Assembly: GCA_004292755.1 (NCBI GenBank)
Contig: RDXE01000057.1
Coordinates: 1 to 55,306 of the forward strand
Length of the DNA: 55,306 nucleotides
Reading direction: 5' to 3'
Origin: Alphaproteobacteria bacterium
Lineage (GTDB): Bacteria; Pseudomonadota; Alphaproteobacteria; Elsterales; Elsteraceae
Shown in pieces: positions 11,146 to 43,427 of the stretch; the first letter of the stretch is position 1, and every line of letters starts with the position of its first letter. The position numbers and the translations under genes are program-made. The notes below the pieces were generated by a model, which was given only the letters and a program-made list of their open reading frames with translations, had not been told where the DNA came from and did not search any database.

Positions 11146-12063
11146 TCAGTCAGCGGTGCTTTTGGTCGCAGCGTTGGATCGAAGGCGGCGGATCACCGGA
11201 GCGCGTTTGCGGAGGCTTACGATTTCGGGCAACGCCTCCATTGTTGCAAATGCATCTCTTAACGACTCAACTGAGTCGGCGGTAACATCTAGTAGAAGTT
11301 TGCGACTGGCATACATCTCGTCCCCCTGATCATGTTCATATAAAGAGACTTCAAATTTTACAATATCAACTGTGTCCCCATCATGAACGAGTATTTGTAT
11401 AAATTTACGTCGGTCAGTCTGTGGATCAATCCATGTATTTTCCAGAAAGATGTCAATGTATGCCGAAAGCTTTGTACTCATCAGAAAACTCGGGTATTCA
11501 GTTACTGTGTGCCCAACTTCATCGAGCAAGTTACCAAGTTCTTGCTTCTTCTGAGATAGCATCTCTATCGCAACTTCGATCAGCGATTCCGGTTCTGAGC
11601 TTCCACTTTCTACGGACTGATCCAGTGGTTCGCTCTGACCAGAAGGGTCAGCCGGCCCAGATGTCGACTCATCAGGCTTTGATCTGGTCTCGCGTTGCAA
11701 AGCAGCTTCTAACTGCTCGCGAACTAAGTCGTTGTAAGTTACCAAGCGAAGTTTATTTGTAGACCGATACTCTTGGTAGGTTGGCAAAATCTTCTCACTG
11801 ACCAACGGACTGTCTTCTATGTTCAAAACATCCAAAGCAGCCCCGATGGGATCCAGATGGAACAAATCAAAGTAAAGATCTTCCGGGAATGATTTAAATG
11901 CCTCTTCAACAAATGGAAGCGGATCCTCCTTCATTTTGGCAAGAGAGTCGTCCGCGGCACCATGCTGTTTCAAAAGCTCTGGATGATTGCTCGCCAAGAG
12001 AGCAACGACCCTTGCAACGTCTTGGAAGTATGGCTGTTCGCTGATTCTGCTCATGTCTTTCAT
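11146..12063 (-). CDS. Module A partner protein (candidate antitoxin/immunity), unknown family
   Basis: A 305-residue acidic protein. Start ATG 12063 overlaps the stop of the upstream ART-like gene by 4 bases (ATGA), so the two are translationally coupled; a TTG at 12072 is a less likely start. Residues from the segment YFQDVARVV through AALDVLNI, about 71 positions, align without gaps to the N-terminal region of the partner in module B (42825-43427), with 23 identities by eye. Shared landmarks are VARVVxLL, VExxFxxFP, DPxxxALD and a following YxExRxxNxL. The middle is a low-complexity Ser/Pro/Glu linker (about 155-190). The C-terminal third is a distinct domain with no counterpart in module B. 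I recognise no known family. The gene is AT-rich (22 G/C in 11401-11460) compared with its neighbours, a sign of transfer. Role as neutraliser or regulator of the ART-like protein is inferred from the arrangement. Confidence 0.8.
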   Translation of the reverse strand: MKDMSRISEQPYFQDVARVVALLASNHPELLKQHGAADDSLAKMKEDPLPFVEEAFKSFPEDLYFDLFHLDPIGAALDVLNIEDSPLVSEKILPTYQEYRSTNKLRLVTYNDLVREQLEAALQRETRSKPDESTSGPADPSGQSEPLDQSVESGSSEPESLIEVAIEMLSQKKQELGNLLDEVGHTVTEYPSFLMSTKLSAYIDIFLENTWIDPQTDRRKFIQILVHDGDTVDIVKFEVSLYEHDQGDEMYASRKLLLDVTADSVESLRDAFATMEALPEIVSLRKRAPVIRRLRSNAATKSTAD

Positions 12064-12578
12064 ACTAACCAAAATCCCTGTTTTGTCAAGAGATCGAGCG
12101 ACCTGTCACTAACGAAGGCTACTTGATCATAGGCCGAAAAAACTTCGCGAGGTCTTGCTGGTCCCCAAGTATAGGCGACTTGGCCGATAACAATGTCCCA
12201 TGGCTCATTTCTCCGCCCAGGATCAGGAAGTTTGTTACCCTTTCTGCACCACTCAATAACACTCCAAAAGCCATTGTAGTCTTGTTTTGCCCACGTGTTT
12301 GCAAAAGCCAGAATGCGGAGCTTCGATAAGTCCGAAAAGTCAACTCTGGTTGCAATAACTGCTGCACCGTTCGTATCCACATTTCTAGGACGACCTGCAA
12401 CAACTGTTGCCCACGTCCTAGCCTGATCGGGATTGGATGTCATATAAAACCCACGGCCAAAGTCGGAAAACTGACTGCAGCGAGCTAGATCTACTTTACC
12501 GCCCCCACACAACGCTTGCGCACTGGCGCGGGTGGTGCCGTGGTAGAGGGTGCGGATCAAGGAGGGTTCGGCGGTCAC
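12060..12578 (-). CDS. Module A DUF3990-like protein with ADP-ribosyltransferase-type motifs (candidate toxin)
   Basis: A 172-residue protein from GTG 12578. The frame extends to another GTG at 12626, but 12578 gives the same 11 residues before TLYHGT as the module B homologue and lies just after a candidate promoter. Motifs resemble the DUF3990 group of the ADP-ribosyltransferase superfamily: LYHGT (first-strand His), DFGRGFYMT (Tyr), a WDIVIGQVA strand and DQVAFVSDR (Gln in the third position), i.e. an H-Y-Q set. Numbered from GTG 12578, these are His13, Tyr45 and Gln152. DUF3990 proteins are generally regarded as toxin-like NAD-using enzymes; the activity here is inferred. Its stop overlaps the start of the partner gene (ATGA). 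It lies 57 bases behind the rodA stop on the same strand, so read-through from the rod-shape operon is possible. Confidence 0.75.
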   Translation of the reverse strand: MTAEPSLIRTLYHGTTRASAQALCGGGKVDLARCSQFSDFGRGFYMTSNPDQARTWATVVAGRPRNVDTNGAAVIATRVDFSDLSKLRILAFANTWAKQDYNGFWSVIEWCRKGNKLPDPGRRNEPWDIVIGQVAYTWGPARPREVFSAYDQVAFVSDRSLDLLTKQGFWLV

Positions 12579-12585
12579 GGCGCGC

Positions 12586-12614
12586 GATATAGCAAGCGCT
12601 TGCCGACCCTGCAA
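12586..12614 (-). promoter_or_regulatory. Candidate promoter with palindromic operator for module A
   Basis: On the minus strand TTGCAG (12614-12609) and TATATC (12591-12586) are separated by exactly 17 bases, a sigma70-like arrangement. The perfect 12-bp palindrome GCAAGCGCTTGC (12603-12592) fills the spacer, the classic place for a repressor site. The predicted transcription start (about 12579-12577) coincides with GTG 12578, so the message may be leaderless. No strong Shine-Dalgarno precedes that GTG. Confidence 0.45.
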
Positions 12615-12635: not shown

Positions 12636-13784
12636 CTAGAGTTCGCCCCGTGGGCCGAAGCGGTTGTCGCGGTGAATCCAAACACTCATCAACAAGCCAG
12701 CTCCGAACATTGTTACGAGCATTGAGGAGCCGCCATAGCTGACCATTGGCAAGGCAGCGCCCTTCGCCGGGATCAGGCCCATCACCATGGCGATGTTCAC
12801 GAACACAGCCAGGAAGATGGTCCACACCACGCCGATGGCGACCAAGCGGCCAAACTGGGTTTGGCTGCGAAAGGCGATCAAGTAGCCATACAGGAACAAC
12901 GTCAGGTAAACCCCCAGCAGGCCCATACCACCAACCAACCCGAACTCTTCAGCCAGCATGGTGAAGATGAAGTCCGTTTGCTTCTCTGGCAGAAAGTTCA
13001 ACGCGTGCTGCGTGCCTTGCAGGAAGCCTTTGCCGAACACGCCGCCAGAGCCCAGCGCGATCTTGGATTGGATGATGTGATAGCCAGCGCCCAACGGGTC
13101 GCGGGTGGGGTCCAGGAAGGTCAACACCCGTTGGCGCTGATAGTCGCGCAGGTAGTATTCCCAGGCCGTGGGCACAGCAGCGGCAATGGCAGCAAAGGCG
13201 AGGGCGAATTTCCACCAGCGCACGCCTGCAATCCAGGCAAGCCCAATGGCACCACCGGTCAGCATCAAGGCCATGCCAAGGTCCGGCTGCTTCATCACCA
13301 ACGCTGTTGGCATGGCCACCAACAGCAGCGGCACCATCAGCCAGATGATCCGGCCCATATCCTCCATGGTTCGTCCATGCCAATAGCGGGCAAGCACCAG
13401 AACCAGCGTGAATTTCATCAATTCTGAGGGCTGGAGTTGAATAAACCCCAGGTCCAGCCAGCGCTGGGCGCCCATACCAATGCGCCCGCCAAGCCCAACC
13501 TCCACCGCGACCAACATCACCAACGCCGCGCCGTAGCACAGATAGGCCCAGCGGAACCACAGCCGGATGTCGATCATGGCGACCACCAGCATCAGCCCGA
13601 GCCCGGCGCCAAAGCGCACGGCCTGGCGGGAGGCCCAGGGGTCCCACGCCCCACCGGCCGCGGAGTATTGCATCGCCAGCCCAACGCCCGCCAAAGCGGC
13701 GACCAACAGCACCACCAGCCAGGGAACTTGCAGCAGCTTGCGCAGAATATTGGGGGGCTCGCGATCTGCGATCAGCACCGTCAT
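12636..13784 (-). CDS. rodA: Rod-shape-determining peptidoglycan polymerase RodA
   Basis: A 382-residue SEDS-family integral membrane glycosyltransferase that polymerises lipid II with PBP2 in the elongasome. About ten membrane segments are visible. Family landmarks include GAQRWLDLGFIQLQPSELMK, KQPDLGMALML, the loop QSKIALGSGGVFGKGFLQGT, the stretch LPEKQTDFIFTMLAEEFGLVG and the C-terminal GLIPAKGAALPMVSYGGSSM. It begins 6 bases after mrdA and is the last gene of mreC-mreD-mrdA-rodA. The AT-rich module A follows directly on the same strand. Confidence 0.97.
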   Translation of the reverse strand: MTVLIADREPPNILRKLLQVPWLVVLLVAALAGVGLAMQYSAAGGAWDPWASRQAVRFGAGLGLMLVVAMIDIRLWFRWAYLCYGAALVMLVAVEVGLGGRIGMGAQRWLDLGFIQLQPSELMKFTLVLVLARYWHGRTMEDMGRIIWLMVPLLLVAMPTALVMKQPDLGMALMLTGGAIGLAWIAGVRWWKFALAFAAIAAAVPTAWEYYLRDYQRQRVLTFLDPTRDPLGAGYHIIQSKIALGSGGVFGKGFLQGTQHALNFLPEKQTDFIFTMLAEEFGLVGGMGLLGVYLTLFLYGYLIAFRSQTQFGRLVAIGVVWTIFLAVFVNIAMVMGLIPAKGAALPMVSYGGSSMLVTMFGAGLLMSVWIHRDNRFGPRGEL

Positions 13785-28143: not shown

Positions 28144-28731
28144 ATGGCTGAACTTTCGTCCCAACCGCCCGTCACCATCAAGAAATACGCCAACCGGCGT
28201 TTGTACAATACGGCAACCTCAAGTTATGTCACGCTTGAGAACCTTGCGCAGATGGTTAAGGAAGGGACCGACTTTGTAGTGTTTGATGCCAAGACAGGCG
28301 AAGACATCACCAGATCAGTATTGACGCAGATTATAGTAGAGGAAGAAGGCAAGGGCCAAAACCTGTTGCCAATCAGTTTTCTGCGTCAGCTGATTGCTTT
28401 CTATGGCGACAGCATGCAGTGGCTGGTTCCTGGGTATCTTGAGAATGCGATGCGCAGCTTTGCTCGCAACCAGGAACAGATGCGGCGGACCATGCAAGAT
28501 GCATTCGGCGGCATGTTTCCATTCGGTGGACCATTTGAAAAGATGGGCAAGCAAAACATTGCCATGATCGAACAGGCAATGAAGATGTGGGCACCATTCG
28601 GCGTGCCCGGCGCACCAGGCTCACCGCCGGCTGCAGCGGGTGACCCGCAAACCCAGGCGATTGATGATTTGAAACGCCAGCTGGATGTTCTGCAACGTCA
28701 ACTGGACAGCATGAACGACAAGTCGCGCTGA
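28144..28731 (+). CDS. phaR: Polyhydroxyalkanoate synthesis repressor PhaR
   Basis: A 195-residue regulator with the diagnostic PHB/PHA accumulation regulator DNA-binding domain: VTIKKYANRRLYNTATSSYV then TLENLAQMVKEG. The associated domain contains ITRSVLTQIIVEEE and LPISFLRQLIAFYGD. The C-terminus is helical with a possible coiled coil (IDDLKRQLDVLQRQLDSMND). PhaR binds both DNA and PHB granules and represses phasin and its own gene. An AGGAG lies about 12 bases before the ATG. No pha biosynthesis genes are in the window. The gene is followed at 160 bases by an XRE regulator. Confidence 0.95.
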   Translation: MAELSSQPPVTIKKYANRRLYNTATSSYVTLENLAQMVKEGTDFVVFDAKTGEDITRSVLTQIIVEEEGKGQNLLPISFLRQLIAFYGDSMQWLVPGYLENAMRSFARNQEQMRRTMQDAFGGMFPFGGPFEKMGKQNIAMIEQAMKMWAPFGVPGAPGSPPAAAGDPQTQAIDDLKRQLDVLQRQLDSMNDKSR

Positions 28732-42235: not shown

Positions 42236-42270
42236 GCCTCCTAAGGGTTTGGGGTTGCGCCCAAGGAGGC
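42236..42270 (+). terminator. Inverted repeat between the SDR gene and module B
   Basis: GCCTCCT (42236-42242) and AGGAGGC (42264-42270) pair perfectly around a GC-rich loop. Only CGCCTGTTTA follows, so termination is uncertain. The second arm contains AAGGAGG and lies about 20 bases before the module B start, so it could also influence ribosome access. Confidence 0.35.
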
Positions 42271-42289
42271 CGCCTGTTTACGATAATGG

Positions 42290-42895
42290 ATGAGCGCACA
42301 TTCTTGGAGCTTTCCGACTCTCTACCACGGCACCATTGACAGTGCTGCTAAGGCGTTAGGAGAGAATCGAGAAGATGTTAGATTACTTGAAGACAGGCAT
42401 CTTGATTTTGGGCCCGGCTTTTATATGACCACTAGCTTGGAGCAAGCGAAGAAATGGGCCGAGAAACAGGCGCGTAGGGAGGGACGACTTGCCGGAAGCA
42501 AGCCTCCAAAGGGTGCAGTGATCTCTTTGAACACAAATCTGCAAAATATTCTGAGCTTTAAGAACTGGGGATTTGGGATGGCATTTGGTGGAATCCCCGG
42601 CCAAGATTGGAACGGTTATTTTTCGCTTGTTAAGTTGTATCGGAGTTTGTCTTTCGGTGATGCGAGAAAATTCACTCAATACATAGGTTGGGACGTTCTT
42701 ATTGGGCCGGTTGCAAAGTTGGGATCTGAAATTAAAGAGATCAAACCCAGCCTAGACCAAGTCGCGTTTGTGAGTGATCGCGCAATACAATGGTTGACAG
42801 GCAAGTTTCGATTGGTAGGATATTATGATGTTGAGATTTTCGAACGATCGGTTTTTGACAGAAGTCGCTCGCGTCGTCGAGCTGCTTGTGACTGA
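42290..42895 (+). CDS. Module B DUF3990-like protein with ADP-ribosyltransferase-type motifs (candidate toxin)
   Basis: A 201-residue paralogue of the module A protein at 12060-12578. It has LYHGT with His13, DFGPGFYMT with Tyr45, QAKKWAEKQA, DWNGYFSL, WDVLIGPVA and DQVAFVSDR with Gln157, the H-Y-Q set of DUF3990-like ADP-ribosyltransferase-fold proteins. The WDVLIGPVA strand agrees even better with DUF3990 sequence than module A does. Enzymatic function is inferred. Unlike module A, where the protein stops at the residues FWLV, this one continues for about 25 residues past FRLV into the partner gene, ending in a basic stretch (RSRSRRRAACD) read from an overlapping frame. The start ATG 42290 gives the same N-terminal length as module A. 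Confidence 0.78.
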   Translation: MSAHSWSFPTLYHGTIDSAAKALGENREDVRLLEDRHLDFGPGFYMTTSLEQAKKWAEKQARREGRLAGSKPPKGAVISLNTNLQNILSFKNWGFGMAFGGIPGQDWNGYFSLVKLYRSLSFGDARKFTQYIGWDVLIGPVAKLGSEIKEIKPSLDQVAFVSDRAIQWLTGKFRLVGYYDVEIFERSVFDRSRSRRRAACD

Positions 42896-43427
42896 ATGCG
42901 AGCCGGTACTTCTAGCCAGTGGAGCTGACACTGAAACGATCAGAGAGGCAAAAAGCAATCTGCAGACCCTCGTTGAGTCTTTTTTTGATGCATTCCCGGG
43001 CGAGATAGGAGAACTGCTACACAACGATGATCCTTGCGACCTAGCGTTGGATATCTTTAGGATAAGAAGCTTAGTAGATGAAGACGGCACTGTTGCTCGA
43101 GTGTACAGAGAGCATCGGGAACAAAATCCACTTGAGTACACAACATTCGGCGCTACAGATAATTTGGCTGAAGAAAATCAAAGACTCAGGCAGAGGCAAG
43201 CTGAGATCGAACAAAAACAATACGTATTGGAGTTGAAACTAAAATTCTATCAAAGCATGATGAAAAACACAATGAATCTGCAAAGTGATCCAAACTCTCA
43301 CCTTTTTGGGAGGGTACGCAATCCGTCTGGTTTCTCTGTTTCCAAGGTCAGCGACTTCGATTCTGAAGAGATTCTGGATTTGCTAAAGGATTTCGATTTG
43401 CTAAAGGATTTGGATTTACAGAAATAG
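42825..43427 (+). CDS. Module B partner protein (candidate antitoxin/immunity), unknown family
   Basis: A 200-residue acidic protein. ATG 42825 or 42828 follows GGTAGGA closely; the start lies 71 bases inside the ART-like gene in another frame. Residues about 10-80 (FLTEVARVVELL through LALDIFRI) align without gaps with the module A partner (23 of 71 identical). After that comes YREHREQNPL, matching YQEYRSTNKL. The C-terminal half differs completely from module A: a coiled coil (ENQRLRQRQAEIEQKQYVL) and an acidic/hydrophobic tail built from tandem DLLKDF/DLLKDL units. The region is AT-rich (19 G/C in 43201-43260). I recognise no known family. The shared domain is probably the part that meets the ART-like partner; the variable half may give specificity or DNA binding. 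Confidence 0.8.
   Translation: MMLRFSNDRFLTEVARVVELLVTECEPVLLASGADTETIREAKSNLQTLVESFFDAFPGEIGELLHNDDPCDLALDIFRIRSLVDEDGTVARVYREHREQNPLEYTTFGATDNLAEENQRLRQRQAEIEQKQYVLELKLKFYQSMMKNTMNLQSDPNSHLFGRVRNPSGFSVSKVSDFDSEEILDLLKDFDLLKDLDLQK
43377..43412 (+). repeat. Two tandem 18-bp units at the 3' end of the module B partner gene
   Basis: GATTTGCTAAAGGATTTC (43377-43394) is repeated at 43395-43412 with one change (last base C to G), followed by a partial GATTTA. Each unit encodes six residues (DLLKDF/DLLKDL), so copy number changes would keep the frame. Confidence 0.85.

What the first reader, a model, noticed from the sequence alone, without database searches (positions are those of the whole stretch)
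12586..12614. Palindromic operator inside a promoter at the head of module A
TTGCAG-N17-TATATC on the minus strand encloses a perfect 12-bp palindrome, GCAAGCGCTTGC, exactly in the spacer. It lies between the rodA stop and the GTG that best matches module B's start, and would give a near-leaderless message. Toxin-antitoxin operons are typically autorepressed at such sites, so the partner protein or complex may bind here.
Basis: partly seen in the sequence, partly recalled or inferred. Interest (0 to 1): 0.6.

Follow-up and report, generated by a model that had tools for sequence, protein, structure and literature searches.

The report
Toxin-first operon with two promoters
The flagged spot is a credible promoter that would start the message right at the toxin-like gene's first codon, but its palindrome is found in no related copy and nothing shows it is a regulatory switch; the better-supported feature is a second, stronger promoter match inside the toxin-like gene, present in both copies of the module, that would make extra partner protein, as known toxin-first systems do.

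Summary
The geometry is exactly as described: minus strand TTGCAG-N17-TATATC (12614-12586), with the perfect palindrome GCAAGCGCTTGC (12592-12603) in the spacer. The promoter is weak by the E. coli consensus (7/12). By the Caulobacter RpoD consensus (TTGaCgS / GCtANAWC) its -10, GCTATATC, is a perfect match lying 7 nt before GTG 12578, which five aligned homologs support as the start. A leaderless toxin message is therefore likely.

Autorepression at the palindrome is not supported. The palindrome is absent from four related module heads and from an equivalent gene without promoter space. It has one non-coding copy in the 4.2 Mb genome. About 0.25% of such spacers (2% of such gaps) would hold one by chance. 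The partner matches no DNA-binding family.

The stronger signal lies elsewhere. TTGACA-N16-TAGTAT (12089-12062) sits at the 3' end of the toxin gene, 7 nt before the partner's conserved start. Paralogous module B has TTGACA-N16-TAGGAT at the same place. These are two of only three 10/12 sites in 55 kb, with synonymous-resampling P of 0.003 and 0.004. I read this as a toxin-first, two-promoter module, working like MqsRA or HicAB. Toxin-antitoxin function itself is untested.

The parts
12609..12614 (-). head promoter -35-like element TTGCAG (TTGCAGG against Caulobacter TTGACGS: 5 of 7)
   Evidence: G001 ortholog has TTGACA at the aligned position
12592..12603 (.). perfect 12-bp palindrome GCAAGCGCTTGC in the spacer; its last two bases on the minus strand are part of the -10 octamer
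   Evidence: absent from all related module heads
12586..12593 (-). head promoter -10 element GCTATATC, perfect match to the Caulobacter RpoD -10 consensus GCTANAWC
   Evidence: consensus from PMC8144410
12060..12578 (-). DUF3990 (ADP-ribosyltransferase-clan) toxin-like gene of module A, 172 aa, GTG start at 12578
   Evidence: Pfam PF13151 E 1.6e-11; start supported by 5-way alignment
12062..12089 (-). internal promoter-like site TTGACA-N16-TAGTAT (10/12) at the 3' end of the toxin gene, 7 nt before ATG 12054
   Evidence: synonymous-codon resampling P 0.0026
11146..12054 (-). partner (putative antitoxin) gene of module A, 302 aa from ATG 12054; an upstream in-frame ATG at 12063 overlaps the toxin stop (ATGA)
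   Evidence: start at 12054 aligns with the other partners; no family match
42255..42284 (+). module B head promoter-like site TTGCGC-N18-TACGAT (7/12), 5 nt before ATG 42290; no palindrome
42290..42895 (+). module B DUF3990 toxin-like gene (paralog, 32% identity)
42794..42821 (+). module B internal promoter-like site TTGACA-N16-TAGGAT (10/12), 3-6 nt before the partner's ATGATG
   Evidence: synonymous-codon resampling P 0.004
42825..43427 (+). module B partner gene (paralog of partner A)

Best explanation
12586-12614 is the sigma-70-type head promoter of a toxin-first, toxin-antitoxin-like operon: a DUF3990 ART-clan protein followed by a partner. It fires at or next to GTG 12578 and gives a leaderless toxin-partner message. 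A second promoter inside the 3' end of the toxin gene (12089-12062) gives a partner-only, near-leaderless message from ATG 12054, so partner is made in excess of toxin. The palindrome is best read as a lineage-specific sequence inside the promoter, either chance or a recent repressor site, and not as a conserved operator of this family. Shown: the sequence elements, the start-codon homology, the internal site in both paralogs, and the absence of the palindrome elsewhere. Inferred: promoter activity, leaderlessness, and the toxin-antitoxin relation.
For: Head: -10 GCTATATC is a perfect Caulobacter RpoD -10 and the pair scores 12/14, P about 0.0005 at this distance (consensus). Loss of T at -7 is the norm in Alphaproteobacteria (PMC8407463). 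Leaderless messages are common there (PMC4117421). The orthologous module in G001 has TTGACA at the same place after rodA. Five homologs align at the start codon. Internal: modules A and B both have TTGACA-N16-TAG(T/G)AT directly before the partner start. These are 2 of only 3 sites of 10/12 or better in 55 kb, with P 0.0026 and 0.004 by synonymous resampling. The spacing is kept although the protein alignment differs by one residue there. MqsRA is the experimental precedent (PMC6918082).
Against: The internal site is weaker in G001 C211 (9/12, P 0.04) and absent in G001 C540 (best 7/12). Module B's TAGGAT could partly be a ribosome-binding site. Head promoters of module B and the other modules are poor matches, and in G384 the homologous gene starts 8 nt after the gene upstream, with no room for a promoter. 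There is no transcript data, and toxicity or neutralisation was not tested.
Confidence: 0.6

Rival explanations
1. One reading: the partner, or the toxin-partner complex, binds GCAAGCGCTTGC between -35 and -10 and autorepresses the operon.
For: The palindrome sits exactly in the spacer (P about 0.0025 by composition) and is the only non-coding exact copy in the genome. Autorepression is usual for type II systems, including MqsRA.
Against: The palindrome is absent from the G001 ortholog head, module B and two other modules. No DNA-binding domain was found in the partner at E up to 1 in Pfam, NCBIfam or PHROGs. No common operator is seen in any of these heads.
Confidence: 0.2
2. The palindrome is a chance by-product of a GC-rich promoter whose -10 octamer begins with GC (CTTGCTATATC); no protein reads it.
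For: Perfect 12-bp palindromes are expected about 23 times in the window and 13 are seen. TTGCTAT-type -10 contexts recur in unrelated alphaproteobacterial tRNA-Lys promoters. No conservation.
Against: The exact placement in a 17-nt spacer has only a 0.25% chance rate if taken as a single prior test.
Confidence: 0.6
3. The palindrome is the operator of a host regulator unrelated to the module, for example of the LacI type with a CG-centred core (likeness recalled from memory).
For: CG-centred palindrome, located in the spacer.
Against: One exact non-coding copy in the genome; all 13 inspected one-mismatch copies are inside long ORFs, so no regulon is visible.
Confidence: 0.12
4. The head promoter is a captured tRNA-Lys promoter, since rodA is ancestrally followed by tRNA-Lys.
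For: tRNA-Lys(CTT) follows rodA in many of the relatives whose downstream region was read. The L040 tRNA promoter GCTATACCGCGCGCCGACC closely resembles GCTATATCGCGCGCCGTGACC.
Against: In both G000 and G001 the tRNA-Lys keeps its own different promoter-like sequence, TTGATC-N17-TATCAC. Family members closer than L040 do not share the sequence.
Confidence: 0.08

Closest known systems
mqsRA of E. coli (toxin-first type II toxin-antitoxin system; PMC6918082)
   Same: Toxin gene first; weak promoter for the whole operon; stronger promoters inside the toxin ORF that drive antitoxin alone.
   Different: MqsR is an RNase-type toxin (own knowledge), whereas this is a DUF3990 ART-clan protein. MqsA is a proven repressor of its operon; the partner here has no recognisable DNA-binding domain. 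Nothing here is experimentally tested.
hicAB of E. coli (P1/P2; PMC11594946)
   Same: Toxin first, with a second promoter that serves only the antitoxin.
   Different: Unrelated proteins. In hicAB the second promoter carries the operator, whereas here the palindrome is at the head promoter.
DUF3990 proteins (Pfam PF13151, ART clan) and PADLOC candidates PDC-M13A/B
   Same: The toxin-like proteins of both modules match.
   Different: The partner gene matches no PADLOC, Pfam or NCBIfam model.
Caulobacter RpoD promoters and leaderless messages
   Same: -10 GCTATATC and a 7-nt distance to the start codon.
   Different: The -35 matches 5 of 7. The organism is another alphaproteobacterium without transcript data.

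Membership tests
DUF3990 / ART clan | Match to PF13151 over the curated cut-off | tested here: met
   Module A 44.6 bits against a cut-off of 32.2; module B 34.1 bits
DUF3990 / ART clan | ADP-ribosyltransferase activity | not testable with these tools
   Needs an enzyme assay; only weak sequence likeness to solved ART-fold proteins
type II toxin-antitoxin system | Two adjacent co-oriented genes kept together | tested here: met
   Modules A and B, G001 C540 and C211; the G001 C64 contig ends just inside a similar partner start. In distant G384 no related partner was found
type II toxin-antitoxin system | First protein toxic, second protein neutralises it by binding | not testable with these tools
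   Needs co-expression assays
type II toxin-antitoxin system | Operon autorepressed through an operator bound by the antitoxin | tested here: inconclusive
toxin-first, two-promoter arrangement (MqsRA/HicAB-like) | Internal promoter in the toxin gene for the second gene | tested here: inconclusive
   Sequence signal strong in both window modules, weaker in C211, absent in C540; activity not measured
Caulobacter-type RpoD promoter | TTGaCgS and GCtANAWC at a short fixed spacing (10-19 bp in PMC8144410; 10-14 used here) | tested here: met
   12/14 with spacing 14

The most novel reading that the evidence does not exclude
A previously undescribed family of toxin-first DUF3990 modules with a partner family that no library names, in which both genes start from leaderless messages: a weak head promoter for toxin plus partner, and a stronger promoter inside the toxin's coding sequence for partner alone. 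The palindrome would be a recently evolved repressor site in module A.
Probability: 0.2. Interest if true: 0.5.

Novelty: new member of a known kind. Interest (0 to 1): 0.35.

Why it matters
If right, it adds a DUF3990/ART module with an undescribed partner family to the toxin-first systems whose antitoxin has its own promoter inside the toxin gene, and shows the arrangement in two diverged paralogs of one genome. It also shows why a palindrome in a promoter is not evidence of autoregulation: the feature shared by the paralogs is the internal promoter, not the operator-like word.

Tried and rejected
(1) Common repeat or genomic word: rejected, 2 copies in 4.2 Mb. (2) A regulon of the palindrome: one-mismatch copies inspected are all in ORFs. 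(3) Captured tRNA-Lys promoter: the tRNA keeps its own promoter-like sequence in both genomes. (4) Intrinsic terminator of rodA: not among the scanner's hits, and there is no T run after the palindrome. (5) Wider footprinting: the module is rare (2 of 385 class genomes, 1 of 398 in the phylum sample, that one being the window's own). No plasmid hits. Viral-contig and GTDB-contig hits are mostly distant DUF3990 matches and were not used.

Full report
Observation. The minus strand reads TTGCAG-GGTCGGCAAGCGCTTGC-TATATC-GCGCGCC-GTG. The hexamers are at 12614-12609 and 12591-12586, the palindrome GCAAGCGCTTGC at 12592-12603, and the GTG at 12578. rodA ends at 12636. The description is exact.

Chance. 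The window has 13 perfect palindromes of 12 bp or more, against 23 expected from a first-order Markov model, so a palindrome falls in a given 17-nt spacer with P about 0.0025 and somewhere in the 57-bp gap with P about 0.02. The word is rare: two exact copies in 4.21 Mb, the other inside flhF. The 13 one-mismatch sites inspected all lie in long ORFs. As an E. coli promoter the site is poor (7/12; a match this good occurs in 28% of random gaps). As a Caulobacter RpoD promoter (consensus from PMC8144410) its -10 GCTATATC is perfect, the pair scores 12/14, it is one of the three best sites in the window, and P is about 0.0005 at this distance from a start. Alphaproteobacterial promoters usually lack T at -7 (PMC8407463), so TATATC is not a handicap, and leaderless messages are common there (PMC4117421). 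I tried the Caulobacter consensus after the E. coli one, so its P value carries one extra trial.

Genes. Module A is a DUF3990 protein (PF13151, ART clan) followed by a partner of about 300 aa. Module B at 42290-43427 is a diverged paralog of both (32% and about 26% identity). The same-genus genome G001 has three DUF3990 relatives. One lies directly downstream of rodA, orthologous in position (L065), one is C211, and one is C64, whose contig ends just inside the start of a similar partner. Aligned starts support GTG 12578 and partner start ATG 12054.

Comparative test of the operator. In G001 the rodA-module gap has TTGACA at the aligned position, but no palindrome. Module B, C211 and C64 lack it too, and they share no other inverted repeat at that place. 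In G384, a member of another family, the homologous gene begins 8 nt after the gene upstream. The partner matches no Pfam, NCBIfam, PHROG or PADLOC family convincingly. Its PDB profile hits are mostly designed helical proteins, which I take as compositional. Autorepression at this palindrome is therefore possible but unsupported.

The internal promoter. The scanner's best site near module A is TTGACA-N16-TAGTAT at 12089-12062, at the 3' end of the toxin gene and 7 nt before ATG 12054. Module B has TTGACA-N16-TAGGAT in the same place, 3-6 nt before its partner's ATGATG. These are two of the only three sites of 10/12 or better on both strands of 55 kb. Resampling synonymous codons of the same genes gives P 0.0026 and 0.004. 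The spacing is the same although the two proteins differ by one residue between the elements. C211 has a 9/12 site (P 0.04) and the G001 rodA-linked module has none, so the feature is strong in this genome and not universal. E. coli mqsRA is the experimental precedent: a nearly silent repressed operon promoter and stronger, unregulated antitoxin promoters inside mqsR (PMC6918082). E. coli hicAB also has an antitoxin-only promoter (PMC11594946).

Context. In many relatives whose downstream region was read, including three of the closest, rodA is followed directly by tRNA-Lys(CTT). In G001 the module lies between the two. In G000 the tRNA-Lys with epmB is on another contig next to a glucose-6-phosphate dehydrogenase-like gene (gene names from my reading of the ORFs), so the module sits in an insertion spot that was later split. 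The tRNA keeps its own promoter-like sequence in both genomes, which argues against the head promoter being a captured tRNA promoter.

Verdict. Observation confirmed. Promoter and leaderless start are likely. Palindromic autoregulation is unsupported. The better-supported regulatory feature is the internal partner promoter.

Noticed in passing
window 12636-12578; L065 1385-2846; G000 C59:24463-24538: The rodA to tRNA-Lys(CTT) gap is an insertion spot: empty in family members, filled by the module in G001, and in G000 filled and then split, with tRNA-Lys and epmB now on another contig.
   Followed up: partly
window 12518-12578 against 12060-12517: The first 60 nt of toxin A are 70% GC while the rest of the gene is 48% GC, as if the 5' end had host-like DNA or a different history.
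   Followed up: no
window 12060-12578 and 42290-42895: Both DUF3990 proteins match PADLOC phage-defence candidates PDC-M13A/B (E about 1e-12).
   Followed up: no
window 42290-42895: Toxin-like protein B runs about 24 residues beyond the other homologs and overlaps its partner gene by about 70 nt, possibly an old frame change near its end.
   Followed up: no
L065 (G001 C540) 171-1385: rodA of G001 appears to lack an internal stretch of about 25 codons relative to G000 (gap), which may be an assembly or real deletion.
   Followed up: no
window 28330-28359: The third of the three 10/12 sigma-70 matches in the window (TTGGCC-N18-TATAAT, minus strand); its gene context was not examined.
   Followed up: no
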